This document shows, one piece after another, positions 403 through 21,554 of a stretch of 35,961 nt of DNA. This stretch comes from a virus. Position 1 is the stretch's first letter; every line of letters starts with the position of its first letter. The DNA is taken from the IMG/VR virus record IMGVR_UViG_3300031746_000084, positions 1-35,961 of that record; one strand, written 5' to 3'. The translations under genes and the position numbers were made by a program. A model generated the notes under the pieces. The model ran no database searches. It was not told the origin of the DNA and saw only the letters and a list, made by a program, of their open reading frames with translations.

Positions 403-603
403 TTACCGGCACTGGTTTAATAATCTAAACCAGCAAAGATACCTCACGCCTCCGGGCTGTTCATTTTCAGCCTTGCCAGGTATCACCGGATAGTTCTTCG
501 TATCCCTATCCAGTGGCGCGTCTTTTTGACCCCATCTCAGGGGGGCAATCTTCATTGCCAGCACGCGCCGCCCAAGATCAGAACGTCTCAGCCAATTCCT
601 CAT
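403..603 (-). CDS. Possible small hypothetical protein (66 aa or shorter)
   Basis: This reading frame overlaps the end of the nuclease gene by 26 bases and ends at 403 inside a perfect inverted repeat. The product is basic and tryptophan/arginine-rich at its start (MRNWLRRSDLGRR). An internal ATG at 555 would give a 50-aa product, MKIAPLRWGQKD onward. None of the starts has a clear Shine-Dalgarno, so I keep it only because the alternative is a 218-base gap between two genes in an otherwise packed genome. It may be non-coding. Confidence 0.3.
   Translation of the reverse strand: MRNWLRRSDLGRRVLAMKIAPLRWGQKDAPLDRDTKNYPVIPGKAENEQPGGVRYLCWFRLLNQCR
412..433. repeat. Perfect 8-bp inverted repeat, 6-bp spacer
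   Basis: CTGGTTTA is followed by six bases and then TAAACCAG, an exact palindrome with an AT-rich centre in GC-rich surroundings. It overlaps the stop of the weak ORF and lies 53 bases upstream of the start of the 86-aa gene. It could be an operator or a small RNA hairpin. No T-tract follows on the minus strand, so it is not a standard intrinsic terminator. Confidence 0.5.
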
Positions 604-1477
604 GCTGTTCACTTTTCGTCCGAAACAGGTTATTGTCTTCAATGCTTGCCCGTCCCGAACAGACGTCCAGGAATGCGCACGTACCGTACCTGCCTACGCA
701 TGAATTGCAGTTGCGCGGGAATCGGGCGTCGGTCTCACAGGCTCGGAACATCTCGACTTGCTGCCATAGGTCCAGGCGGGCGTCCTGAATGTCACTGTCG
801 AGCTTCTGGTGTTCTCGCCACTGAAAGAACTCCGCGGGCGCGGCGTCCATATCGGCTCGCACGCGGATCATGTACGCCTCGCCAGCCGTGATGCCCTTGG
901 CCGCGGCTTCCTTCTGGTCCTTGCCGCAGAGTTTGATTCCGGGCTTGCGGATCACGTCGTAGATGAACTTCGTCGCGCCGCGCGCCAGGCAGTAGTTCTG
1001 CATCTGGCCGTCGATCTGGAGCGCAGACCAGTAGGTTCCGAAGCCTACGATTTCGGATACCGTGGTCTTGTGATCCACGATCACGACCTCGCCTGTCGCC
1101 TTTTCCTTCAGCACCAAATCAATCTTTCCAGCCAATCGGTAGCCGTAGAACGCCCGGCCGGCAGAGGGCGATTCGATCTTGACCTCGAACGGCTCCTCGA
1201 CCGCCAGCACGTCATACAGGTTGCGCGGCGGCGTGTAGCACGCCAGGATTGCCGCGACTTTCGTGGCCGTCTCTTCGTCCATGGTCTCGGCCTTCATGGC
1301 TACTACGGCCGCCTCCAGGCCGCCTGTCCACCAGGCTTCCAAGGCGCGGTGAACCAACTTCCCGAATCCGCGCGCCGTGCCTTCACTGACCGGCAGGCGC
1401 TTCAACTCGAACTCGTAGAAGTATAGACGTGGGCAAGTTCTAAACTTTGATAAACTTGAGGATGTAAGGACTTTCAT
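578..1477 (-). CDS. Cas4/RecB-like PD-(D/E)XK exonuclease with Fe-S cysteines (299 aa)
   Basis: The nuclease core is visible. His43 lies in GKLVHRAL, Asp120 in AGKIDLVL, and Asp135-x-Lys137 in VVIVDHKTT, followed by QMQNY at 158-162, the RecB-family Q/Y motif. Cys15 (FRTCPRLYFYEF) at the N-terminus and Cys257, Cys260, Cys267 and Cys273 at the C-terminus match the split layout that holds a 4Fe-4S cluster in Cas4 and AddB-type nucleases. The ATG at 1477 is chosen because AGGAG is five bases upstream; ATG 1480 is adjacent. The likely role is resecting or trimming DNA ends for phage recombination, working with the Sak4-like and SSB-like proteins encoded just upstream. An intrinsic terminator separates it from the SSB gene, so its expression may depend on readthrough or a local promoter. 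There is no CRISPR context. Confidence 0.85.
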   Translation of the reverse strand: MKVLTSSSLSKFRTCPRLYFYEFELKRLPVSEGTARGFGKLVHRALEAWWTGGLEAAVVAMKAETMDEETATKVAAILACYTPPRNLYDVLAVEEPFEVKIESPSAGRAFYGYRLAGKIDLVLKEKATGEVVIVDHKTTVSEIVGFGTYWSALQIDGQMQNYCLARGATKFIYDVIRKPGIKLCGKDQKEAAAKGITAGEAYMIRVRADMDAAPAEFFQWREHQKLDSDIQDARLDLWQQVEMFRACETDARFPRNCNSCVGRYGTCAFLDVCSGRASIEDNNLFRTKSEQHEELAETF

Positions 1478-1509
1478 CATATCTCCTATGTCCATACGCA
1501 AAGTCAAGG

Positions 1510-1548
1510 AAAAACTTAAAATAGGCCGGTCCCTTTCTTCGACCGGCC
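1510..1548 (-). terminator. Intrinsic terminator after the SSB-like gene
   Basis: On the minus strand, an 8-bp perfect GC stem (GGCCGGTC / GACCGGCC, positions 1548-1524, 9-base loop) is followed at once by the T-rich run TATTTTAAGTTTTT (1523-1510). It begins 11 bases beyond the SSB-like stop codon. Stem strength and U-tract fit a rho-independent terminator acting between the SSB and nuclease genes. Confidence 0.8.
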
Positions 1549-1559
1549 CCTTCCCCCAC

Positions 1560-2075
1560 TTAGAACGGAATGCTGCTGTCGCCTTCCTGCACGCCAGGGG
1601 TCGCCGGAGGAAGGGCGACGGCAACCATGGTTACCTTCTTTGCCGGCGGGCGCTTCTCGCCCTTCTCCACCCTGGCCCGGACGGCGTGCAGAATCGCGTC
1701 GAACTTCTTGGCGTTCGCCGATGCCAATTCGCTACCCTGGAGTTCAGGCGAGTAGTCCTCGCGGTTCACGAACGCGACCTTCGCGCTGAACTTCCCTTCC
1801 CATTCGTCGTGCTGCACCGTGACCGTGACCTTGTTGCCGACCATGCTGTAGGCCGCAAGGTTCACGTCGCTCCAAGAGGGGCCGCGGAAGCCCATGGCCA
1901 TCATCTTCTCGGCCGTGTACTCCACGGATTTCTCACTCAGAGAGAAGTACCCGCGGACCCGGCCGTGTTCGGTCGTGAAGTCCGCGATGATCTGCGGCTT
2001 CCCGGTCTTGGATTCCCCAAGCACTGCGGCCAGCACTTCAGCCTTGTAGACGCCTTCTGGGTGTAAGTCTGCCAT
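1560..2075 (-). CDS. SSB-like single-stranded DNA-binding protein (171 aa, DUF669-like)
   Basis: The protein is predicted to be beta-rich, with an OB-fold-like N-terminal region (EGVYKAEVLAAVLGES, then GRVRGYFSL, then KVTVTVQHDEWEGKFSAKV). It ends in a flexible Pro/Ala stretch and GDSSIPF. A terminal acidic-IPF tail is the hallmark of SSB proteins, where it recruits partner enzymes. The gene lies two bases after the Sak4-like ATPase and before a PD-(D/E)XK nuclease, the classic phage recombination trio, so it most likely coats ssDNA during annealing and replication. The N-terminal fold assignment is by pattern only. A GGGAGG ribosome site lies inside the end of the upstream gene, about ten bases before ATG 2075. 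An intrinsic terminator follows directly. Confidence 0.75.
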   Translation of the reverse strand: MADLHPEGVYKAEVLAAVLGESKTGKPQIIADFTTEHGRVRGYFSLSEKSVEYTAEKMMAMGFRGPSWSDVNLAAYSMVGNKVTVTVQHDEWEGKFSAKVAFVNREDYSPELQGSELASANAKKFDAILHAVRARVEKGEKRPPAKKVTMVAVALPPATPGVQEGDSSIPF

Positions 2076-2077
2076 GG

Positions 2078-3022
2078 CTACTTGCCTCCCGCGGCCACGG
2101 GCGCCGCTGCCTGTTCCGCCGCCGCCTTCTCTGCGTGCTTACGACGCAGAGCATCAAGGAGCTTGCGGGCCTGTGTGATGTTGAGGTCTTCCAGCTTTGC
2201 GACGTTCTGGCTGGCCAGCGTTTTGGCCGCGAGGTCCGCGGTCAAAATCGGCCACAACTCTTTGATCTCGGCAAGCGTCGCGCTGCCCTTGCCGAGTTCT
2301 GCCGCGAAGGCCGCCCAGGAGAGCGGCATCTGGTCCGGGAGTTCATAGCCGACGCGGCACTTCGCGTCCTGCGCGGCGTGCCCCGCCGCACTCATCCACC
2401 GCGTGCTCGTGCCCACGGCGCGGGCCTTCTTCTGGTCCTTGACCACGCTGTACTCATAGTCGGCCCGCAAAATGATGTCTGACCATGCCGAGAGGCGCGC
2501 CCACGGGTACTTGTCGATGTCGGCTGAGAACTTGCCGAAGTCGCCGTCGATGGGGTTCTTGACGTTCACGACTCCCGTGTGGGCCAGGAGCAGAATCGTC
2601 ATGCCCTTTTCGCGGCAGACATCCAGAAGCGCCAGAAGCGCGCGCAACTCTTCACTGACCGACTTCCAGCCTTGCGCGAATGACAGGAAGCTCTCTGTGC
2701 CCTTTTTCGGTGCCCACTGGCCGCCGAACTGCGTCGTGCAGATTTCCTGCGCGCATAGTTCCACCATGGCGTTGATCGTGTCGCCCACGACCGTCTGATG
2801 CTCATGCTTCTCAGTTGAAAGTCTCCGCGCCCATGTGAGCACTTCCTGCCACGTCTTCAGCTTCGGCGTCTGCGCCACAGGGATGTTATCCACTCCGTTC
2901 TCGGCCGCAAGAAACACCGGAGATGGACTGTCCGCTCCGAACGTAGATTTTCCTACGCCCGGCGGTCCGTATAGGATGATTCGCGGGGGATATTTCATCC
3001 CCTTAATGAGTCCCTCCATCAT
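2078..3022 (-). CDS. Sak4-like RecA-fold ATPase, putative single-strand annealing recombinase (314 aa)
   Basis: A Walker A P-loop, GPPGVGKST, sits at residues 19-27 close to the N-terminus. It is followed by a hydrophobic strand ending in Asp (TVVGDTINAM, Walker B position) and a later TILLLAHT strand. This is the short RecA-core architecture of phage Sak4 proteins, which anneal single strands with help from an SSB. The C-terminal third is helical and Ala/Lys-rich. ATG 3022 has AGGAG six bases upstream. The next genes encode the SSB-like protein and a Cas4-like nuclease, supporting a role in recombination. An HNH endonuclease remnant abuts its 5' end. Generic AAA ATPase is the fallback annotation. 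Confidence 0.85.
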   Translation of the reverse strand: MMEGLIKGMKYPPRIILYGPPGVGKSTFGADSPSPVFLAAENGVDNIPVAQTPKLKTWQEVLTWARRLSTEKHEHQTVVGDTINAMVELCAQEICTTQFGGQWAPKKGTESFLSFAQGWKSVSEELRALLALLDVCREKGMTILLLAHTGVVNVKNPIDGDFGKFSADIDKYPWARLSAWSDIILRADYEYSVVKDQKKARAVGTSTRWMSAAGHAAQDAKCRVGYELPDQMPLSWAAFAAELGKGSATLAEIKELWPILTADLAAKTLASQNVAKLEDLNITQARKLLDALRRKHAEKAAAEQAAAPVAAGGK

Positions 3023-4113: not shown

Positions 4114-7100
4114 TTATTTTTGCTGAAAGCGTTCCTGTATCGCGGCCTTCTCGGCTTTGCTCTTGCCAAAGCGTTCCGGCACGCGTTGGCGGCGTTCCTC
4201 TTGCTCCTTTAGCTTACTCTTTACGTAGGGTTGGTTGGCTATCAGAAGATCACTTTCCTCTTGGGTAAGAGGTTGATTCGCATTGGCCTTGACCATTGCG
4301 CGGTCCACGGCGCTCAACTCCTTGGCGCGGGCCTCCTGGACGGGTTCAGCCGCTTGCTTGGCCTGTTCGCTCAGGCCGTAGTCGGAAACCTTGATGAACC
4401 GGCCCATGAGGTTGCTGGCCACTGGCGCGCCGAGCACTTGTTCCAGTTCAGTGCGTATCTCCCCCGGCTGATCGCTCTTGAACTCGTAGACGATGGAGCC
4501 GCCGAGGTCGCGCCACAGCGCCTTGGCCATTGCCTTGTGTCGCTCCGGCCAGCCTTCTTCCCATGCCCGCTTGCCGATCTTCTCCTGGCCGCGGAACTCG
4601 TCGTAGGGGTTCCGACCGGCGAAGAACGATACCGCATCGCCGAAGACGCCGAAGATCGGGTTCAGGCTGGGGGCCTGCCCCGCGCCGTAGGCGAGAGACT
4701 GTTCGGCCATTTTGCCCGGACGCTGCGGGGCCTGGAGGCCCTTCCATACCAGCCCGCCAATCAGGCGCGACAATTCATCCTGGGGCGTGCGGAAGAACAA
4801 AGTCTTGCCTTGAGGCGTCATGCCCAGCGGGATCGACGTATAGTTCGTCTTGTTGTACTCGCTGATGCCGTCGTACATCCTCTTCATGCCGGTTGCCCAT
4901 TTCACGGCTTCGTCATCATCCGATAACCCCATCGCCTTCAGGCCGGCGATAACCGCCCCGGAGGCCAGTCCGTACATGAGCACCTTCGGGGCCGTGCCGT
5001 AGGCCGCGCGCTTCAACATGATCTCCTTGCCGTGCGCGCCTCGCATGGCCGCCACGTCTGAAACCGTCGCCTGAATCATGGCGTTGCTGAACAAGAAGAT
5101 GTTGTTCGTGACGGGCGTCGCTGCGCCTTGAGTAAGGAAAGCCGGAGACCCTACCTCTTCCCGCACCATGTTGGCGATTTTGGCATCCGACAGGCCAAGC
5201 CGCGCCTGATTTTCTTTCAGGTACTTATAGCCCGCCACCTTGGGCAAGCGTTCGATGCCCGCGCTAATGGCGAAGAATCTGTCCTTCACGGCCAGCGCGG
5301 CCGACATGAAGGACTGCACGGGCTTCATAACGTTGCTTTCCCATTCTCTCGGCGTCTTGTTCCACTGCGCCAGCTGCCTTTCAAAGTGCAGGTCCGACTG
5401 GTTCATGTTCGCGGTGTCATGCACGCTGATGAGCATGGTGCCCTTCAGCATCTCGCGGACCAGGGGATCGTTGTTGCCTCGCAGAATGTGCGGCAAGGCC
5501 CCAAGATACTGTTTGATGAAGTTCGGCCGGAACGGGCCGGTTCCCGGAAGGTTGATCGCCGCCCGCTGGTAGTCGCGGATCAGGTTGAAGGTCCAGAAGC
5601 CAGGGTTGGCGACGGTGAACACCATGCGCGTCGGGTTCGCAACGGCCCGCAATGCCTTGACGCCCATGTTCAGCACGGGCGAATCCGAAGACCGCTCGAC
5701 CGCCGCGGCGTACTTCGGATGCATGTCCGCACCCTTCAGTACCCCGCCCTCCAGCCACAACACGGTCTTCCATCGCGGGTCCTTCGACTCGACAACGGTC
5801 AGACGCTTGCCGTCCCACTTGCGTTCCGAGTTCCGAATGGCTGATGGGTCTTGTTCCCGAACAAGCTCCACGACCGACTTCTTCGCGTTGTTCCAATAGG
5901 CCGAACGGATCAGCCCGGCGTCCTGTTCGATCATCTCGCCCGCCCCGGCCGCCACGGGCTTCAGCGTGCCGTGCTGCGCCAATATCTTCAGGCCGCTTCC
6001 CGCACCGTGCGCGTCGTTCAGGTACTCGACAACATGAAACGGCGAATAGAACTCGTTGCTTTCGATCTTCTTCATCAGCGCCGGGGAGAAGATGTCGTAT
6101 TCCCTGAGAAGGTCGATCACGCTTTGCCGCGCCTGCCACAACTGCTTGTGCGCCTGCTCCAAGGCGGCGTAGCGTTCCGGCCCGAAGTCCTGCTTCATTT
6201 CGTCAAGGCGGCGCTGCGCGCGTTCCGGCCCGAAGCCCATGGGGTTCAGGATTTCCTTGCGCTCGTTGGCGATACGCTGCATCTCCATGTACTCTGACAA
6301 GTCATGGGCCGACAGTTGCTTGGCATCCAGCGTCTTCTTCGCCTTGCCGACATCCTGCATGTAGTATTCGATCCTGGCCCCACCGAAGACCGCGCTGTTG
6401 ACGGCTTCGGTGGCGTCGATGTCGCGGAGGCCGGTCCGATGCGCCTTGGCCTCCAGCGCCTTGACGACCGCGGCCTTGTCCTGGAAGGCGATGCGAACCA
6501 TGTCCAGCTGGCCAAGGGGGCCGCGTGTGCGGTCTTCGAGTTCCTTGGCTTTCGCCTCTTCGCCTTTCATGTAGCCTTCGCGCCGGCGCTTGGTGATCTC
6601 GGCATCCTGCGTGCCCGACTTGATCTCGTTGGTGATCTCGTCGTAGATGCGCTTAACTTCTGGCTTGCGGTCCAGGAAGCGGAAAAAGCCCTCGCTGAAC
6701 TTAGGCGCTCGCTGCGCCAGGGCTTGCGGGTCGTTGAGCAGCACGCTCAGCGCATCGGCGTACAACTCCTTCCCGGAGAACTTGTACTTCTTGAAGTTCT
6801 TGTCCATCTCGGCTTCCTTGAGGTTGTTCCACCACAAGGTCAAGCCCTTCAGTTCTGCCCTAATCTCCGTGTTGTTCATGCCCTCCAGTTCCTTGCCCAT
6901 GAACCGCGACAGGCTGGCGACGCGGCCCAGGAGGTTGCCGCGCTTCAACGTCCAGTCCGGCAACCAGTCGGCCGCGTGGCCGATCTCGTGCGCCAGGACG
7001 TTGCCGGCGAAGTTCGGATCGCGGCGGTAGAACTGGAGCAACATCTTGTTGCCCTGCGGAATCCATGTCTTCGTGACGATGATGTCCTTCTCGGCGTCGA

Positions 7101-9576
7101 GGTTCGGAAACTCCTCGACGATCTTCCTTTTCAGGCCGTCGATCATTTGATCGGCTTCGGCCGCCTTGACGCGGTACGCCTTGATGATCGGTCCCTTGGA
7201 GATGTCGGCTTGCAGCCCGATACTGCCTTCCGATCCCTCGCCCCAGAACCGCCCGATGGCCTTGCCGCGCAGTTTCCTGAAGACGCTCGGCGCGGTGCCC
7301 AGGGCATCGGTCGCCATGCGGACGAGTTCCGGCAACTCGAAGGCGACGCGCTCGCCAGCAGGGCGCTCGCCGCGGTACTGATACGAGAAGGCCGCGCCGC
7401 CTGGAGCACCTTCGGGTTCCGCCTTCGGCTGCGCCTGCTCGGCCGCGCCTTTGGTGGGAAGACTCTTAACATCATCAGGATGTTTCACTTCTCCCGATGG
7501 CACCGGAAGCGTTCGGCCGTCAGACAATTTGATAATCGTCGATTCACCTTTCCATTCGACAATCTCTGCCTTTTGGCCGCGCCAGATCACCTTCTGTGTC
7601 GATTCCTTCTCGATCTTCTCGGCTTCCGCGTTCAGGGCCGCTTCCCCCTTCCCCGGTTCCGTCGTGAACTTGCCTTTCTTGTCAACCCAGCCCTCGACGG
7701 CCTTGCCCTTGTTGACGAGATCGACGTTCTCAGGCGTGGCAAGTCCCGCGTGCGTGCCAGTCGGGGACGTAATGATCTTGCCGCTGGTGGTGCGCAGAGC
7801 GGCCCGGTACTCGCGTTCAGCCGGAGCCTCTGCGGCAGGCGGCTTGACGGCCTCCACCCCCACCCCCGGCGTGACTTCAGAGGGTTCCGCGGGCGGCTCA
7901 GCCTTCGGGGCCTTGGTGACGATTGCTGTAGTATCCAGGGGCCATGGAGTAGGTTTCCCCTTGCCGGTATCCGGCAGAACGATGACGTTCTCGCCCTCGA
8001 CCCCGATCACCATGGCCTTGACGCCGCGCTTGTTCCGCACGATGTCGCCCTGGGCGAAAGGTTCGGCCGCAGGGGCGGGTTCGGCAGGAGTTGGTGGGGC
8101 CTTGGCTCCAGGAGGAGGGGAGACCGGTCCCCTTTCTGGTGGCTTCGGCCCCGTAGGCGGGGGTTGCTCAGGGGGGACTTCGGGGGGTGGGGCCTCCGGG
8201 GGCTTGCGTACTTTGGGCACTTCCGGTCCAGTCCAGAAACGATCTCGCGCGGGCCAATACTTGTCCTTTGCTCCAATTGAGACTTCGGCCGATTCGGGAG
8301 GCGGTGGAGGTTCCGGCAACCCCTCTTGCGGGAAGGTTCCGCTTTTGAAGTATTCCGCAAGCGATGCGGCTTCTGCGGCGCGGGCTTCTTTCGGCCCATC
8401 GGCTGACGCCAATCCCAGCTTCCGGGCATCCTGCCGTGACGGCTGTTCCTTTGCCGCGTAGGCTTCGGCCCCGGCGCGGTTCTGTTCGACCAGCGCGGCC
8501 AACTCGGCCTTGATCTTGCCAGGAGAGGCGAGGGCTTCGCGGACGTTGCCAATGGCTTCTTGGCCGCCCTTTGCGATAGCCCCTGGGGCCGCCATGAGTC
8601 TGCCGCCCAGCGCCCCGCCCGCGGCGGCAACCCCGGCTTCCTCCAGGAGCTTCTCGAAGTCTACGGCTTCGCCCCTGAACCCGGCGCGCTTCAGGTTCTC
8701 CACGATTGAGAACCCGGCCATGGTCAAGCCTTCGCGTGCTCCGTGGCCTACGAATGCCGTGGCCTGTTGCCGCAACGTCTGCTTGATGATCTCTTGGGCC
8801 TTGGGTTTGAACATCTGCCCAAGTTTCAACCCCTTGGCTGCCCCAATCCCCATCAACAGGGCGCTGATCCCTGCTTCGCCAGTGGCGAGCGCGGAGGCTT
8901 CAGCCTCGGAATGCCCGGCCTCCAGGTGCGCGGCCTTGGCTTCCGGGTAGGCGTCCCCGGCCGCCTTGAGCATGAAAATTTGGATCGGCCTACTAATCAG
9001 AGCGGTTGCCGACCCCTTGCCGAAAATCATAGAGGCCGCCACATCGCCCGCGAGGCCCGCGGCGAAGCCCGTTATCTTCTGTCCCAGCCCCGGCGCAATC
9101 GTTCTCGGCTCCTGGGCCTGTGCCAGTTCGTCCGCACCTTCTTTTAGGTTTCGTCCAAATGTCTCCAGCATGTCATTCTTCGACGGCTCCCCGCCAGTCA
9201 GCATGGCATAGGTCTTGCCGCCAAGGTCTCCGGCCATTTCGATAGCGCCGCCAACACCCGCGGCAAGGCGCGGCAATGCTCCAGTGAACCCGGCAACCGC
9301 CGCGCCGAAAACGTCCGGCTCGTACAGGCGCGGATCGCCGCCAGCGCCCGCGCGGCTGAGTTCGTAATTTTGCCGTTCCAGTTGTTCGGCATACCTGTTC
9401 ATCTCGTCGGTTTCGCGTTGCAACTGAAGAAGCGGATCGCGCCGCCGCTCTTCCTCGATAACGCGAGGCATCGCGTCAAGCCGTCGCTGCATTCCGGCAA
9501 CGGTAGGGGCCTCGCGCGGGTCTTGTTCTTCAAGCCAACCTTGGAGGTCTTCGATTTGAGCAAGCGATTCAGGCAT
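4114..9576 (-). CDS. Giant internal virion/polyvalent protein with zinc metallopeptidase motif and LPD38-like region (1820 aa)
   Basis: Residues 1-400 are helical with glycine/alanine-rich hydrophobic stretches. About 420-505 is a Pro-rich linker (PPPPPE, PPEVPPEQPPP). Two SH3/KOW-like beta segments follow (GDIVRNKRGVKAMVIG; VIWRGQKAEIVEWKG). A zincin-like domain holds HEIGH at 863-867 with a downstream KELYADAL (Glu937/Asp941) as a possible third ligand. Around 1320 onward, VANPGFWTFNLIRDYQRA begins a long helical region resembling the LPD38 domain of phage polyvalent proteins. Such proteins are thought to be packaged and injected with the DNA, and the peptidase may trim virion or host-envelope proteins. 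It is last in a three-gene internal-protein block, eight bases after the preceding gene. It is not a tape measure: the other genes indicate a short tail. Confidence 0.8.
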   Translation of the reverse strand: MPESLAQIEDLQGWLEEQDPREAPTVAGMQRRLDAMPRVIEEERRRDPLLQLQRETDEMNRYAEQLERQNYELSRAGAGGDPRLYEPDVFGAAVAGFTGALPRLAAGVGGAIEMAGDLGGKTYAMLTGGEPSKNDMLETFGRNLKEGADELAQAQEPRTIAPGLGQKITGFAAGLAGDVAASMIFGKGSATALISRPIQIFMLKAAGDAYPEAKAAHLEAGHSEAEASALATGEAGISALLMGIGAAKGLKLGQMFKPKAQEIIKQTLRQQATAFVGHGAREGLTMAGFSIVENLKRAGFRGEAVDFEKLLEEAGVAAAGGALGGRLMAAPGAIAKGGQEAIGNVREALASPGKIKAELAALVEQNRAGAEAYAAKEQPSRQDARKLGLASADGPKEARAAEAASLAEYFKSGTFPQEGLPEPPPPPESAEVSIGAKDKYWPARDRFWTGPEVPKVRKPPEAPPPEVPPEQPPPTGPKPPERGPVSPPPGAKAPPTPAEPAPAAEPFAQGDIVRNKRGVKAMVIGVEGENVIVLPDTGKGKPTPWPLDTTAIVTKAPKAEPPAEPSEVTPGVGVEAVKPPAAEAPAEREYRAALRTTSGKIITSPTGTHAGLATPENVDLVNKGKAVEGWVDKKGKFTTEPGKGEAALNAEAEKIEKESTQKVIWRGQKAEIVEWKGESTIIKLSDGRTLPVPSGEVKHPDDVKSLPTKGAAEQAQPKAEPEGAPGGAAFSYQYRGERPAGERVAFELPELVRMATDALGTAPSVFRKLRGKAIGRFWGEGSEGSIGLQADISKGPIIKAYRVKAAEADQMIDGLKRKIVEEFPNLDAEKDIIVTKTWIPQGNKMLLQFYRRDPNFAGNVLAHEIGHAADWLPDWTLKRGNLLGRVASLSRFMGKELEGMNNTEIRAELKGLTLWWNNLKEAEMDKNFKKYKFSGKELYADALSVLLNDPQALAQRAPKFSEGFFRFLDRKPEVKRIYDEITNEIKSGTQDAEITKRRREGYMKGEEAKAKELEDRTRGPLGQLDMVRIAFQDKAAVVKALEAKAHRTGLRDIDATEAVNSAVFGGARIEYYMQDVGKAKKTLDAKQLSAHDLSEYMEMQRIANERKEILNPMGFGPERAQRRLDEMKQDFGPERYAALEQAHKQLWQARQSVIDLLREYDIFSPALMKKIESNEFYSPFHVVEYLNDAHGAGSGLKILAQHGTLKPVAAGAGEMIEQDAGLIRSAYWNNAKKSVVELVREQDPSAIRNSERKWDGKRLTVVESKDPRWKTVLWLEGGVLKGADMHPKYAAAVERSSDSPVLNMGVKALRAVANPTRMVFTVANPGFWTFNLIRDYQRAAINLPGTGPFRPNFIKQYLGALPHILRGNNDPLVREMLKGTMLISVHDTANMNQSDLHFERQLAQWNKTPREWESNVMKPVQSFMSAALAVKDRFFAISAGIERLPKVAGYKYLKENQARLGLSDAKIANMVREEVGSPAFLTQGAATPVTNNIFLFSNAMIQATVSDVAAMRGAHGKEIMLKRAAYGTAPKVLMYGLASGAVIAGLKAMGLSDDDEAVKWATGMKRMYDGISEYNKTNYTSIPLGMTPQGKTLFFRTPQDELSRLIGGLVWKGLQAPQRPGKMAEQSLAYGAGQAPSLNPIFGVFGDAVSFFAGRNPYDEFRGQEKIGKRAWEEGWPERHKAMAKALWRDLGGSIVYEFKSDQPGEIRTELEQVLGAPVASNLMGRFIKVSDYGLSEQAKQAAEPVQEARAKELSAVDRAMVKANANQPLTQEESDLLIANQPYVKSKLKEQEERRQRVPERFGKSKAEKAAIQERFQQK

Positions 9577-9584
9577 GTGGAGTC

Positions 9585-10871
9585 CTATTGCTTACCTGAT
9601 AATGCCGTGTTGCCTTCAATCGCCTTGGCAAGTCTTTCTCTCGCCTTGGTATTTGCCTCTATCACGTCACGATTTGCCTTGTCGCGGTCATCGGTCGCGG
9701 GCGCTTCCGCCTTCTGCTCCGGCGGCGGGGGGGCGGCAAGATCGGGTTGAGGCTCGGCCTCCATCTCGATGACGTTCTCCATCGTTGCCGGTTTGCCGCC
9801 GCGGCCCACAATCTCTCTCATCTTCGCCTCGACGGTCTCCGCCGGAATCGCCGCTGCCGAATCGGGGTTTGCGTCTCTGAGTTCCACAAGCGCCCTACGA
9901 CGCAATACGGCCTTTGATGGGATGCCCGCCATGATTCTCTGTTTCTGTTCACGGTATTGCCGTATCTGATCTTCAGTAGGTTCCTGGTTTTCTTTTGTCT
10001 GCAACGCCTTATACGCCTTGTCATATTCGTCGCTGTCCTTCTCTTCCCTCTTCTGGTCAGCCGTTTTCGCCGCTGCCGCCGCTTGCTCCCTGGCAAGTTT
10101 ATGGGCTGACGCGATTTTCAGTTGCTCCCGCGCAGTCGGCCCTATTCCGGGTTCTCCCGTGTCTTTGTCCCTGTCCATCGTTACGTTCATGCGCCCACCT
10201 AAGCCATCATCAATCTCCATTGTCGGGTGCCGCTCTTTTGCTTCTTCTCCCGGCGTCTTGGGCTCGGGAACGTTCGGATCATCCTCTCCAAAGGGGATTC
10301 GGCTTTGCTCGAAAAGGCCCTTGATGGCCGCCAGCTTGCCCTTTTCGTCACGGGCATTGTCCAGCGCGACGCTTTGCACGTTCTTCCGCAACTTACCGTA
10401 CTCTTGAAGCAACCCGGCATTCGTCGGGTTCTGCGGGTTCTTCATCAATATGTCCATCGTGCCGTTGAGCTGGTTCACGGCCATATCTATCGCCTTGCGC
10501 TGGGACGCAATGTTGCCTTGCCCGGTCTCAAACGTCTGCTTCATTGTCTCCAGGTCTTTTGTGCGCTCGTCGTTCTGTGCGTCGAAAATGGCTTTCTGCT
10601 TCTCCAGTTCGATCCGATCCAAGTGTTCCTGTCGCTGCGCCGCCACCTTGGCCGCGGCATCGATCCCATGCTGTTCCTTCTGCGCCTTGAGTTGCGCCGC
10701 CAGCGCGTTCTCATGCGCCTCCGCCGCGGCCCCGGTGCCCCAGCGCCCCGGCTGCGCGTTGATGCGGTCCTGCCGCGCCTGCGCGGCCCGGCGCGCGTCT
10801 TCCTGGCCCGCCAGGAGCGCGCCAGACATCAGAAGCGCCGGATCGACGGCGTACTTGCGAACGATGGGCAT
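9585..10871 (-). CDS. Helical internal virion protein candidate (428 aa)
   Basis: The protein is almost wholly predicted coiled coil, rich in Ala, Glu, Lys, Gln and Arg (AARQDRINAQ; KAIFDAQNDERTKDLE; TADQKREEKDSDEYDK). It has a short Pro-rich break near residue 380 and no cysteines. It lies between a 276-aa protein and the 1820-aa polyvalent protein with gaps of eight bases each. In short-tailed phages this position belongs to ejection (internal core) proteins, which are typically long, helical and poorly conserved. The role is inferred from position and composition only. Confidence 0.65.
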   Translation of the reverse strand: MPIVRKYAVDPALLMSGALLAGQEDARRAAQARQDRINAQPGRWGTGAAAEAHENALAAQLKAQKEQHGIDAAAKVAAQRQEHLDRIELEKQKAIFDAQNDERTKDLETMKQTFETGQGNIASQRKAIDMAVNQLNGTMDILMKNPQNPTNAGLLQEYGKLRKNVQSVALDNARDEKGKLAAIKGLFEQSRIPFGEDDPNVPEPKTPGEEAKERHPTMEIDDGLGGRMNVTMDRDKDTGEPGIGPTAREQLKIASAHKLAREQAAAAAKTADQKREEKDSDEYDKAYKALQTKENQEPTEDQIRQYREQKQRIMAGIPSKAVLRRRALVELRDANPDSAAAIPAETVEAKMREIVGRGGKPATMENVIEMEAEPQPDLAAPPPPEQKAEAPATDDRDKANRDVIEANTKARERLAKAIEGNTALSGKQ

Positions 10872-10879
10872 GATGGCTC

Positions 10880-11710
10880 CTACTCAGTCTCGTGCTGGAA
10901 CGTATCTTCGCCGACATATCCAGGTGCCATGGCGTAACGTTTCTTCCTGGTCGTTCCGTAATAATCATCCGCCGGAATGACACTGTACCCCGCCCGCGCC
11001 GTACCGCGTGTCGGGCCTCCGGCCGTCATGGCGGTTATGGGAGCTTGGCTCCTCGCCCCGCCCGCCCCCACGGTGCCGAGCATGGCGTACCGTCCCCCCG
11101 CCCCGGCCGCCCCTGCGCCCTGGCTCTGCCCCAACTGCATCCCCAGCAAGGCCGCTTGGTCCATCTGCGGGTACTCGTCGGTGACGCGCTCGATCATGCC
11201 GAGCTTGCCCTGAGTCACGCCGAGCCGCTGCTGCGTCGTGCGTTCGTTCAGCCGGGCCAGGTCCGCGGTCTTCTCGCGCTCCGTGGCGAGCCGTACCTGG
11301 CTGCCCAGGCTGGTCCGGCCCATGCCCTGTGCGGACAGCCGCTGATGCTCCTTGGCGTAGGCGTTGTCATAGGCCGCCCGGATGTCCGCGCCTTCCTGCT
11401 GGCCCAAGCCCTCCACCATGGATTCCATGCCAGCCCAGCCGGTGCGCAACTCTCCCAACCGGGCCTCGTTCGCCTGCTTGGCTTCCCCCTGCTGCTTCCT
11501 GTAGTCGGACACGGAAGCCGCAAAGATGGCCTCGGGATCCAGCTTGCCGCCCGCGCCGTACCACTCGGCCGGCAAACTGTACTTCCCGGTGCCGCCCTCT
11601 GCCGGCGACTTGTTGCTCGCCGCGTTCAGACCTTGCCGGTTCTTGCCATACAGCAGGTCCAGGTAGGCTTGTTCACCACCATACTGTGCATAAACGTCTC
11701 CGTAAGGCAT
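10880..11710 (-). CDS. Putative internal virion protein, first of the ejection block (276 aa)
   Basis: The N-terminus is Tyr/Gly-rich (MPYGDVYAQYGGEQAYLDLLYG). A central helical region follows (NEARLGELRTGW; LATEREKTADLARLNERTTQQR), then a Gly/Ala-rich low-complexity C-terminal third (GAGAAGAGG) ending in a polar tail. It resembles the smaller internal-core or ejection proteins of podoviruses in size, composition and position ahead of two larger helical proteins. No enzymatic motif is visible; in particular I see no lysozyme or transglycosylase signature. It starts nine bases after the tailspike gene ends. Confidence 0.55.
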   Translation of the reverse strand: MPYGDVYAQYGGEQAYLDLLYGKNRQGLNAASNKSPAEGGTGKYSLPAEWYGAGGKLDPEAIFAASVSDYRKQQGEAKQANEARLGELRTGWAGMESMVEGLGQQEGADIRAAYDNAYAKEHQRLSAQGMGRTSLGSQVRLATEREKTADLARLNERTTQQRLGVTQGKLGMIERVTDEYPQMDQAALLGMQLGQSQGAGAAGAGGRYAMLGTVGAGGARSQAPITAMTAGGPTRGTARAGYSVIPADDYYGTTRKKRYAMAPGYVGEDTFQHETE

Positions 11711-18996: not shown

Positions 18997-19185
18997 CTAC
19001 GAAACGATGACGGGAAGCCCACCCTCTTGCGTCACGCGGTCGCCGTTCTCGTTCAGAAGAAATTCACCTCCGGCCCGCGCCTCGATCTGCTTCAGAACCT
19101 CCTGCACATGCTGAAACGCCAGGCGGATTTCGTCCGGGTCGTTGCCATGCGGCACTACGAAATCGAGTCGGTCTGTCCAGACCAT
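18997..19185 (-). CDS. Small hypothetical protein coupled to the tail nozzle gene (62 aa)
   Basis: ATG 19185 overlaps the TAA of the nozzle gene (TAATG); the longer open frame upstream is a shadow. The product starts MVWTDRLDFVVPHGNDPDE, has a central helix (AFQHVQEVLKQIEARAGG) and ends with a beta hairpin. It may be a small fibre adaptor or chaperone by position. No family is recognised. Confidence 0.65.
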   Translation of the reverse strand: MVWTDRLDFVVPHGNDPDEIRLAFQHVQEVLKQIEARAGGEFLLNENGDRVTQEGGLPVIVS

Positions 19186-21554
19186 TACCGCCTCGACCTT
19201 CCGGCGTTCAGAACCCGTGCCACCATGTTCTCCACGCCCCAGCGCCGCCCCGTGTCGCCGTTCGCCAGCTTGACAATGAAGCTGCCGCCGCGCGCGCGGG
19301 GATGCGATGTACGCTGCCGGCCGCCCAGGGAATGCGTCGCCCATTCGCCGCTATGCCGCGCCGTCGCGCTGACTGCCGCCTCATGCGACTGTGCCGCCAG
19401 GATGCTCCAGCCAATCGTCCCAGAGCCTTCGCTTATCGCGCCGTCGAGATCCGCAATGATGCCGTCGTTCAACTGGTCCCAGCCTCGGAACGGCCCGTAA
19501 AGCACATAGCTGCTGAACGCCGTGCCGTCGTCCGTCTCGGCCGTGCGGCGGTGCCGCCTGAGATACCCGTCCCGGCATCCCAGGATTACCGCGCTCTCCG
19601 AAGCGTCGTCAGCCACATAGTTGAAGATGCAGGTAGGCTCCTGCACGACCGGGTAGGTCTCGGGCCAGAAGCCCTTGGTCTCCCAGGCGAACCACCAATG
19701 CGTCGTGGCCCGGCTGTCCTTGGGCGTGACGTAGATGTGCACGCCCCGGAACCGGATGTCATACTCAAGCAAAATGATCGAGTTCGTGGGGTCCACGTCC
19801 AGGAGTTCCTGGGGCAGAATCTCGCGGGACGTGCTGATCGGCACTCCTTGTCCCGGCTCGATGATATAGATGCCGTCGCGGGTCAGCATCACGATCTCGC
19901 CGCCCGGACCCCTGGCCCATGCCTTCAGGTCCAGCGCCCCCACGTTCGGCGACAGCGTGTTGAACTGCGCGCCATACGCCGGATCGCCGCGCATCACCCA
20001 GCACTGCGTCTGCCCGAACGCGAAGAAGTAGTCGGCGCTATGGCCGAACATGCACCTGACGGCTTGGCCCACGTTGCCGCCCTCGCTGGCCGGACCATTA
20101 ACCGCGCGCTTCACGTCATCGCTGGTCGTCAGCCAGTCCAGGGGATCGCCCTTGCGGCTGAAGTACCAGACGTGCGGCGCATCCATGCTGCCGGCCAGCC
20201 CGAGGCGGTCCTGATAGACCGTGATGGCCCGACAACCCGCGGGGATCGGCCCTTTATCGGTCGTGTGGAGCCACAGCGCCAGCGTGCCGGCCACGGGATC
20301 GTAGACCTTGGGGCCGCGCTCGATGCGGTAGGCATAGGTGCCGGCGCTCGATGCCGGGGAGATATGGATGTGCGCCGTGGAAATCGTCGTGATCTCGTGG
20401 AGCGTGACGATCCCGCCACTGCTCGTCAGCCGCACCACGTAGTTGTAGGTATCCAGCCCCAGGGCGGTCCAATCCGCTACGGTGCCGACGTGCGAAAGTT
20501 CGTCGGCTGATGCGCCCGCGATGGTGCCGCCCGTGTCGTCCAGGACCGCGGCGTCGTAGTCCGCGATGTAGAGCTTCTGAAGATACTCGGCGCACTGGAC
20601 CTGATGGCCCGTCGCCAGCGTCAGATTGCTGGACACCTGAGCCATGGTGCCTATCGTGGTGCTTTTGTAGAGCAGCCCGTTGGCACTGGCGACCAGAAGG
20701 GTCCGGGTATCCTCAGCCGCCACGGTGCTGTAGTATTCAGTCTTGAAGGTGTCCACCAGGGTCAGGCCGCCGTCCACTGTGCACTGCATCCCGAATCCGA
20801 AGCGCGTCCCGGCCGCCGCACCCACCCCGGTAGAGCCAAGCACGGCCACGCCGCGCCACGTCACCGTCACGTTGGTTCCATTGATGTTCAGCACGAGCCA
20901 GCCCGGCAGGGCAGACCCGATGCTGCCCGGCGTGAATGCCGTGGTTGAAATTAAAACGCCCGCGCTGTAGACCTTCAAGTTCCCTGTGTAGTCTCCGGTA
21001 TCTCCGGTATGGATAAGTTCGGCTGCGATGCCGTCCTGTTCTACGTTGGGACTCGACGCCGCCATGCGGGCGTAGATGCGATACTTGCCGTGGTGCTGAC
21101 CGCTCCACGGCGTGATGAAGATTGCGATGCTGTAGGCTTGCGCCGTGTCGAGATCGGACAGCGCTGTGCGCACGGCCCCGACTTCGGCGTTGTATGTCAG
21201 GGAGGAAGATGCCTTGGGTAACAGCGCCGGAGCGGCCGAGACCCAGCTTGCTGCGGACCAATGCGTCCCCAGGCTCGTGCCCGTAAAGTTGTCGCTCCAG
21301 AAGGTAAGCCCGTCCGAAGCCACGTAGCTCACGCTACCCAGCATTCGGACGGGGTTCCCGCTTCCAAGTTGCGTGTAGAAAGCCTTGTCCTGTCCCGGCC
21401 GACTGCCCCCCGGTGCCCGGCCTTCAAGCGTGCTGTCGGGTCGCACATTCAGGCAGTCCGGGGTACTGAACGGCGGCTGTCCCGAATACGAGAAGCGCAA
21501 GTTCCTGCCCCGGAGGGGGAATTGCAGTTCGATGTTTCTCTGATCGGCCGGCAT
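19185..21554 (-). CDS. Tail nozzle / tail tubular protein B-like (P22 gp10-type), with inserted lectin-like domain (789 aa)
   Basis: The N-terminus (LRFSYSGQPPFSTPDCLNVRP) and the region from about residue 280 onward fit the beta-propeller nozzle family. RLGLAGSMDAPHVWYFSRKG near 450-470 is the characteristic motif, with GLDTYNYVVRLT and GGEIVMLTRDGIYII as propeller strands. This protein plugs and extends the short tail below the adaptor. Residues about 87-275 are unlike the nozzle: they carry a jelly-roll pattern (DNFTGTSLGTHWSAASW; GKYRIYARMA; GWLVLNINGTNVTVTW). I infer a concanavalin/LamG-type domain inserted near the N-terminus. The usual nozzle length without an insert would be about 600 aa. 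Confidence 0.8.
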   Translation of the reverse strand: MPADQRNIELQFPLRGRNLRFSYSGQPPFSTPDCLNVRPDSTLEGRAPGGSRPGQDKAFYTQLGSGNPVRMLGSVSYVASDGLTFWSDNFTGTSLGTHWSAASWVSAAPALLPKASSSLTYNAEVGAVRTALSDLDTAQAYSIAIFITPWSGQHHGKYRIYARMAASSPNVEQDGIAAELIHTGDTGDYTGNLKVYSAGVLISTTAFTPGSIGSALPGWLVLNINGTNVTVTWRGVAVLGSTGVGAAAGTRFGFGMQCTVDGGLTLVDTFKTEYYSTVAAEDTRTLLVASANGLLYKSTTIGTMAQVSSNLTLATGHQVQCAEYLQKLYIADYDAAVLDDTGGTIAGASADELSHVGTVADWTALGLDTYNYVVRLTSSGGIVTLHEITTISTAHIHISPASSAGTYAYRIERGPKVYDPVAGTLALWLHTTDKGPIPAGCRAITVYQDRLGLAGSMDAPHVWYFSRKGDPLDWLTTSDDVKRAVNGPASEGGNVGQAVRCMFGHSADYFFAFGQTQCWVMRGDPAYGAQFNTLSPNVGALDLKAWARGPGGEIVMLTRDGIYIIEPGQGVPISTSREILPQELLDVDPTNSIILLEYDIRFRGVHIYVTPKDSRATTHWWFAWETKGFWPETYPVVQEPTCIFNYVADDASESAVILGCRDGYLRRHRRTAETDDGTAFSSYVLYGPFRGWDQLNDGIIADLDGAISEGSGTIGWSILAAQSHEAAVSATARHSGEWATHSLGGRQRTSHPRARGGSFIVKLANGDTGRRWGVENMVARVLNAGRSRR

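What the first reader, a model, noticed from the sequence alone, without database searches (positions are those of the whole stretch)
4114..9576. 1820-aa virion protein with HEIGH metallopeptidase and LPD38-like region
One polypeptide appears to hold helical membrane-active segments, a Pro-rich linker, SH3/KOW-like strands, a zincin-type protease (HEIGH at 863-867, Glu937/Asp941 as possible third ligand) and an LPD38-like C-terminal half. A protease built into a giant internal protein could process itself, other ejection proteins or host envelope proteins during DNA entry.
Basis: partly seen in the sequence, partly recalled or inferred. Interest (0 to 1): 0.6.

Follow-up and report, generated by a model that had tools for sequence, protein, structure and literature searches.

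The report
Phage-ejected giant protein with zinc protease
This 1820-residue phage protein is very probably packed in the virus head and squirted into the host with the DNA; it carries a real, strictly conserved zinc-protease domain fused to a large helical domain typical of phage 'polyvalent' ejection proteins, so it is a divergent member of a known kind of infection protein whose protease has never been tested.

Summary
The ORF is real (9576-4114, minus strand, 1820 aa). No Pfam, PHROGs or NCBIfam model hits the full-length protein, but the zincin reading holds. Relatives found without using the zincin motif (C-terminal half only) keep HExxH in 43/43 untruncated cases; among 39 distinct ones H863, E864, H867, E937 and D941 never vary. 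AlphaFold gives the zincin core; best solved matches are M34 peptidases (lethal factor, Certhrax, PPEP; Z 6-8). The C-terminal ~830 aa share profile (hhalign E 1.7e-31) and whole fold (BFVD, TM 0.5-0.7) with phage LPD38 'polyvalent' proteins, although the window itself fails the Pfam LPD38 model. The gene ends a head-tail module, directly after a 428-aa gene, like T7 gene 16. It has no cysteine, nor do its 428- and 276-aa neighbours; the same holds for P22 gp7/16/20, T7 gp15/16 and N4 gp50/51/52, a signature already proposed for N4 vRNAP as an adaptation to ejection. Relatives carry variable N-terminal cargo (ART, GGDEF, methylase-helicase, SLT); the window's has none recognised, so the protease is kept without cargo to release. 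Most likely an ejected protein whose protease acts after ejection on itself, partners or host. Substrate and timing are untested.

The parts
4114..9576 (-). giant ejection-type protein, 1820 aa, cysteine-free
8332..9576 (-). N-terminal part (aa 1-415), Gly/Ala-rich predicted helices, no recognised family and no detectable similarity to the N-termini of relatives
8047..8325 (-). proline-rich linker (aa 418-510, 34% Pro)
7477..8058 (-). possible small beta (SH3-like) segments (aa ~507-700); tentative
   Evidence: only sub-threshold Pfam hit at aa 669-694; sequence inspection
6607..7359 (-). zincin (gluzincin) metallopeptidase domain, aa 740-990
   Evidence: model m5f0e9e2da5e7, VIA matches, hhalign to DarB-like phage zincins E 3.7e-8
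6976..6990 (-). HEIGH motif, aa 863-867 (His zinc ligands, Glu general base by analogy)
6754..6768 (-). E937-L-Y-A-D941: likely third zinc ligand Glu937 and invariant Asp941
   Evidence: 39/39 in motif-independent relatives
4117..6609 (-). helical LPD38-type C-terminal half, aa 990-1820
   Evidence: model mcdb9f8e7b93e, BFVD whole-length matches, hhalign to LPD38 proteins E 1.7e-31
9585..10871 (-). 428-aa cysteine-free helical protein, putative partner ejection protein (T7 gp15 position)
10880..11710 (-). 276-aa cysteine-free protein, putative partner ejection protein (T7 gp14 position); relatives in L022 and L012 also lie upstream of their giant genes
19185..21554 (-). 789-aa putative tail nozzle protein of the same late module
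   Evidence: phmmer matches to L022 and L012 proteins upstream of their giant genes; other relatives have phrog_376 tail protein there

Best explanation
The protein is an ejected internal virion protein in the position of T7 gp16. It has a variable N-terminal part and a constant C-terminal module made of a gluzincin metallopeptidase followed by an ~830-aa helical LPD38-type domain. It is packaged in the head, probably uncleaved, with the two cysteine-free proteins encoded just upstream; on infection it passes largely unfolded through the tail and across the envelope and refolds; the refolded zincin then cuts, most likely the ejectosome itself (own linkers or partners), possibly a host protein. 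Shown here: zincin core and invariant ligands, LPD38-type homology, constant/variable architecture, gene position, cysteine-free composition. Inferred: ejection, refolding, activity. Unknown: substrate and timing; self/partner cleavage is preferred only because the protease is retained where no cargo is recognised.
For: Zincin. C-half: hhalign E 1.7e-31 over 574 columns to proteins with a bona fide LPD38 and 83 BFVD matches at E<=1e-3. HExxH-to-end length 1092 +/- 108 aa against N-terminal 451-2957 aa. N-termini of relatives carry ART-PolyVal, GGDEF, SNF2/ResIII, Eco57I, SLT, RadC, radical SAM; the window's first 640 aa none. Order nozzle - small gene - 260-700 aa gene - giant gene in nearly all relatives with upstream DNA. 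Cysteine: 0.25 per 1000 aa in the constant module, 0 in 52/52 immediate upstream genes, 9.46 in other ORFs; zero in P22 gp7/20/16, T7 gp15/16 and N4 gp50/51/52. JC1 gp69 (LPD38, 4515 aa) is in CsCl-purified virions with 51 unique peptides, and N4 vRNAP, also zincin-bearing, is packaged unprocessed (PMC9144972, PMC5512222).
Against: No protease activity has been shown for this family. The window fails Pfam LPD38. No virion proteomics for this phage. Two LPD38-type proteins (Pelagibacter phage Lederberg, Bacillus phage Pony) show no HExxH in the part examined, so the C-half can do without the protease. T7 gp14 has one cysteine and scaffold and some capsid proteins are cysteine-free too, so that sign is not exclusive to ejection proteins. 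Fold matches to M34 are at Z about 8, the level that needs the motif evidence to be convincing.
Confidence: 0.62

Rival explanations
1. The zincin acts before or during head assembly: it trims the giant protein or partners so that they fit in the core, and the mature virion holds fragments (as proposed for P1 DdrB).
For: P1 DdrB is processed before packaging and has a C-terminal zincin (PMC5512222). An internal protease would be well placed in the head.
Against: N4 vRNAP, with the same zincin-plus-helical layout, is packaged unprocessed (PMC5512222). Many virions have a separate prohead protease; none was sought systematically here.
Confidence: 0.25
2. The zincin is an anti-host effector that cleaves a bacterial protein (defence or envelope) after injection.
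For: The fold resembles secreted M34 peptidases, and relatives carry host-directed cargo such as ART. Strict conservation without cargo fits a function of its own.
Against: An effector aimed at a fast-evolving defence should be swapped often, yet the zincin is retained in 43/43 relatives and always coupled to the same C-half.
Confidence: 0.25
3. The domain keeps a zincin fold and metal site only as a structural element or DNA/membrane-binding platform; it is not a protease in vivo.
For: No proteolysis known for the N4 C1 domain although its structure is solved (PMC12633501 reports only the motif).
Against: The general-base Glu864 is invariant (39/39), which a purely structural zinc site would not need.
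Confidence: 0.12
4. HEIGH is a chance motif in a structural protein.
For: No profile library recognises the full-length protein.
Confidence: 0.02

Closest known systems
Phage polyvalent proteins with zincin-like MPTase and LPD38 (Iyer et al. 2017, PMC5512222), e.g. Escherichia phage PTXU04 2197-aa protein and DarB-like protein of Vibrio phage VvAW1
   Same: Zincin followed by the ~800-aa LPD38-type C-terminal half; Asp three residues after HExxH as in VvAW1/BA3 and as described by Iyer et al.; cysteine-free
   Different: Below detection by the Pfam LPD38 model; no recognised enzymatic cargo; the conserved strand-2 histidine described for one phage MPTase clade is not evident; PTXU04 has HExxxH instead of HExxH
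Pelagibacter phage EXVC032P Baldr gp20 (2329 aa)
   Same: Only INPHARED relative by tblastn (E 2e-22); zincin HELGH and C-half conserved; sits after nozzle and a 606-aa gene
   Different: Longer N-terminus; large insert between the zincin helices
Bacteriophage N4 virion RNA polymerase gp50 (C1 zincin + helical C2)
   Same: Same order zincin then large helical domain at the C-terminus; cysteine-free; ejected with two partners (PMC12633501, PMC5512222)
   Different: No significant profile similarity to the window family; only a marginal 98-column match between LPD38 proteins and C2 (E 0.007, probability 5.5); window lacks an RNA polymerase
Bacteriophage T7 gp16
   Same: Gene position after nozzle, gp14, gp15; large, helical, cysteine-free
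   Different: T7 gp16 has an N-terminal transglycosylase and no HExxH zincin known; no sequence similarity tested or found
Peptidase family M34 (lethal factor, Certhrax, PPEP-1/3)
   Same: Zincin core, best solved structural matches (Z 8.1 to 6.1, 124-152 residues)
   Different: No significant sequence similarity to any solved structure; large insert between HExxH and Glu helices; phage virion context

Membership tests
zincin-like (gluzincin) metallopeptidase | HExxH helix with two His ligands and catalytic Glu | tested here: met
   863-867; invariant in 39/39 motif-independent relatives
zincin-like (gluzincin) metallopeptidase | third ligand Glu on the next core helix | tested here: met
   E937 invariant 39/39 and in helix 201-214 of the model; metal binding itself not shown
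zincin-like (gluzincin) metallopeptidase | core of N-terminal helix, three-stranded sheet, two C-terminal helices | tested here: met
   model elements H14-25, E30-32, E41-46, E49-55, H122-137, H201-214
zincin-like (gluzincin) metallopeptidase | zinc-dependent proteolysis | not testable with these tools
   needs protein
peptidase family M34 | sequence homology to the M34 family | tested here: inconclusive
   structure matches only; no significant profile hit to solved chains and no Pfam M34 hit
Pfam LPD38 (PF18857) | score over the curated cut-off of the model | tested here: not met
   no match in the window; 4 of 29 relatives and Baldr match below cut-off
LPD38-type C-terminal half (superfamily) | profile homology and whole-fold match to proteins with bona fide LPD38 | tested here: met
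   hhalign E 1.7e-31, 574 columns (LPD38 in PTXU04 E 1.6e-38); BFVD
phage polyvalent protein (Iyer et al. 2017) | two or more disparate domains in one polypeptide of an invasive element | tested here: inconclusive
   zincin plus LPD38-type half present; no second enzymatic domain recognised in the window, though relatives have several
podophage ejection (internal virion) protein | present in virion and ejected with DNA | not testable with these tools
   only indirect: gene order, cysteine-free signature, relative JC1 gp69 in virions (PMC9144972)
N4-type vRNAP C1-C2 module | sequence-profile homology | tested here: inconclusive
   none for the window family; marginal for LPD38 proteins; no structural comparison possible

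The most novel reading that the evidence does not exclude
The zincin plus ~830-aa helical half is one ancient, interchangeable delivery-and-processing module shared by giant ejection proteins across podophages, including LPD38/DarB-like proteins and N4 vRNAP C1-C2; its protease is kept even without cargo because cleavage of the ejectosome after passage is part of DNA entry itself.
Probability: 0.2. Interest if true: 0.75.

Novelty: new member of a known kind. Interest (0 to 1): 0.45.

Why it matters
Zincins are the commonest enzymes in polyvalent phage proteins, but what they cut and when is unknown. A family in which the protease is strictly conserved, even in members with no recognised cargo, is a clean system to test whether the protease serves ejection itself rather than cargo release. 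It also shows that 'LPD38' (189 positions in Pfam) is part of a C-terminal fold of about 800 residues, and that cysteine depletion, noted before for N4 vRNAP, marks LPD38-type proteins and their upstream partners and may help to spot ejected proteins in unannotated phages.

Tried and rejected
Library scans of the full-length protein (Pfam, PHROGs, NCBIfam) found nothing above threshold; the C-half alone matched phrog_14770 (unknown function, E 6.9e-7). Single-protein scan of viral contigs found no relative; first genome scan none. Foldseek of the zincin model against PDB gave only long-helix chance matches; VIA gave the M34 matches. C-half against PDB: best Z 3.2, nothing interpretable, and the N4 vRNAP structures were not listed, which is not evidence of a new fold. 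Direct homology of the family to the N4 C-terminal domain: no support by hhalign. LPD3 family: no match in the window. First relative set (L003-L031) was selected partly by the HExxH pattern, so its conservation was set aside in favour of the C-half set. L007's split gene looks like one frameshift inside the zincin insert and was not used as evidence of natural splitting. SH3/KOW domains and TM helices in the N-terminal half: no adequate support. Strand-2 histidine clade of Iyer et al.: not evident in the alignment.

Full report
Observation. The window is an IMG/VR virus record of 35,961 bases with no end repeats, 62% G+C. The finding is the minus-strand ORF 9576..4114, 1820 aa, ATG start 8 bases after the stop of the 428-aa gene upstream. 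HEIGH occurs once, at 863-867. Full-length scans of Pfam, PHROGs and NCBIfam find nothing above threshold.

Relatives. The only INPHARED record with a match is Pelagibacter phage EXVC032P Baldr, gp20 (2329 aa), E 2e-22 over aa 937-1732; the zincin region also matches and HELGH and the Glu helix align. An alignment of the two found 29 loci in viral contigs, with ORFs mostly of 1580-4142 aa, but one of the patterns used was the HExxH motif. To remove that bias the C-terminal half alone was used; its patterns ([RSK]EM..., NN...F.N) do not touch the zincin. That gave 53 loci, 46 on new contigs. Of 43 that are not truncated, all have HExxH 128-306 aa before the half. In the 39 distinct ones G775, H863, E864, H867, E908, E937, D941 and P950 are invariant and D870 is Asp in 38. 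This is strong evidence for a functional metal site and general base.

Zincin structure. A 24-sequence AlphaFold model of aa 735-1015 (mean pLDDT 77, 92-95 in the blocks with the Glu helix; the HEIGH helix 84-91) shows helix, three strands, an insert, the HEIGH helix and the E937 helix. VIA-align ranks M34 peptidases first: lethal factor Z 8.1 (4.0 A, 137 residues), Certhrax 7.4, PPEP-1 6.8, PPEP-3 6.2, with an unrelated row between at Z 6.6. Z near 8 alone would be modest; with the invariant motif it is convincing for the zincin core, not for membership of M34. The zincin profile also matches that of DarB-like proteins of Vibrio phages VvAW1 and 41E34.2 and Thalassomonas phage BA3 (hhalign 95%, E 3.7e-8), aligning HEIGH-AAD with HEMAH-YLD and ELYAD with EGFAEF.

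C-terminal half. AlphaFold of aa 990-1820 gives a mostly helical model (pLDDT 78.5, pTM 0.76). In BFVD it matches, over about 800-1000 columns, many phage proteins named 'Large polyvalent protein associated domain (38)', with E down to 2.6e-34 and query TM-scores mostly 0.5-0.7. Escherichia phage PTXU04's 2197-aa protein, which scores E 1.6e-38 for Pfam LPD38, and seven relatives were aligned; hhalign of that alignment with the window family gives 99.9%, E 1.7e-31, 574 columns. The window itself fails PF18857, and four contigs and Baldr match it below cut-off. So 'LPD38-like' is right in the sense of homology, not of Pfam membership. Six of the eight LPD38 proteins have HExxH or HExxxH upstream in the part examined; Lederberg and Pony do not.

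Architecture. From HExxH to the end the family measures 1092 +/- 108 aa, whereas the part before it ranges from 451 to 2957 aa. The N-terminal parts of relatives contain ART-PolyVal, GGDEF, SNF2/ResIII helicase, Eco57I methylase, SLT, RadC, radical SAM and DNA polymerase clamp matches: variable cargo on a constant module, as Iyer et al. described for polyvalent proteins (PMC5512222). The window's N-terminal 640 aa match nothing and resemble no relative's N-terminus. Its zincin is the only enzyme recognised in it.

Gene context. The window's late module runs, on the minus strand, from a putative terminase through scaffold, capsid, a 249-aa tail protein (phrog_6013, E 0.003), a 789-aa putative nozzle, fibres, then 276, 428 and 1820 aa, then a Sak4-type gene (roles without a cited match are by sequence inspection). 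In nearly all relatives with upstream DNA a 260-700 aa gene directly precedes the giant gene, usually after a small gene and a 700-820 aa nozzle; two of these nozzles match phrog_376 at E about 1e-190 and the window's 789-aa protein matches the corresponding proteins of L022 and L012. This is the order of T7 genes 12, 13, 14, 15, 16.

Cysteine. The giant protein and its two upstream neighbours have no cysteine. Over the family the constant module has 18 cysteines in 72,347 aa (0.25 per 1000), the N-terminal parts 0.48, the immediate upstream gene none in 52 of 52 (23,223 aa), other ORFs of the same loci 9.46; a Poisson comparison gives P about 1e-262, though sequences are related and not independent. 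Known ejection proteins behave alike: P22 gp7, gp20, gp16 none; T7 gp15, gp16 none (gp14 one); N4 gp50, gp51, gp52 none. Cysteine-free vRNAPs have been reported and explained by passage through tail and oxidising periplasm (PMC3715699, PMC2784036, the latter citing Kazmierczak 2002). Here the sign extends to LPD38-type proteins and their partners and supports ejection independently of gene order. It is not exclusive: scaffold proteins are cysteine-free too.

Experimental anchors from papers. JC1 gp69 (4515 aa, LPD38 at 4195-4401) is in purified virions with 51 unique peptides, as are gp68 and gp67 directly upstream (PMC9144972). N4 vRNAP, with a zincin C1 and helical C2, is packaged unprocessed and ejected (PMC5512222, PMC12633501).

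Mechanism. Shown: zincin fold prediction with invariant ligands, LPD38-type half, constant/variable architecture, position and composition. Inferred: packaging in the head, ejection, refolding, then cleavage. The obligate pairing of protease and C-half, even without recognised cargo, argues that cargo release is not its only job; cleavage of the ejectosome (own linker or partners) is preferred, a host target next. The proline-rich linker just before the zincin and the resemblance to Pro-Pro endopeptidases suggest one candidate site; this is speculation. Substrate and timing remain open.

Verdict. It is a new, very divergent member of a described kind.

Noticed in passing
window 4114-11710 and relatives: Strong cysteine depletion in giant proteins and in the gene just upstream (0 of 23,223 aa in 52 genes), shared with known ejection proteins of N4, T7 and P22; could serve as a sequence-only marker of ejected proteins.
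   Followed up: partly
L034 (N4 gp50) against LPD38 alignment A9: Marginal co-linear 98-column profile match between LPD38 proteins and the end of N4 C2 (E 0.007, probability 5.5); possible remote homology.
   Followed up: partly
window 578-3022: Downstream of the giant gene: Sak4-like AAA protein (phrog_124, E 8.6e-30), then a 171-aa SSB-like and a PD-(D/E)XK-like nuclease by sequence inspection, a recombination module.
   Followed up: no
window 22082-24904: 940-aa protein with many degenerate repeats (GDAI.I.M.N.A), probably a tail or surface fibre; no family.
   Followed up: no
L007 7238-13479: Giant gene split by what looks like a single frameshift within the zincin insert, between HEIGH and the Glu helix; sequencing error or broken gene.
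   Followed up: partly
L023, L031: Giant proteins with three HExxH motifs each; multiple zincins possible.
   Followed up: no
L106-L110: Relatives in metagenome-assembled genomes named Planctomycetes, Parcubacteria, Kiritimatiellia and Chitinispirillales; may be prophages or mis-binned phage contigs, so only weak host hints.
   Followed up: no
L104, L105: LPD38-type proteins without any HExxH in the part read (Pelagibacter phage Lederberg, Bacillus phage Pony).
   Followed up: no
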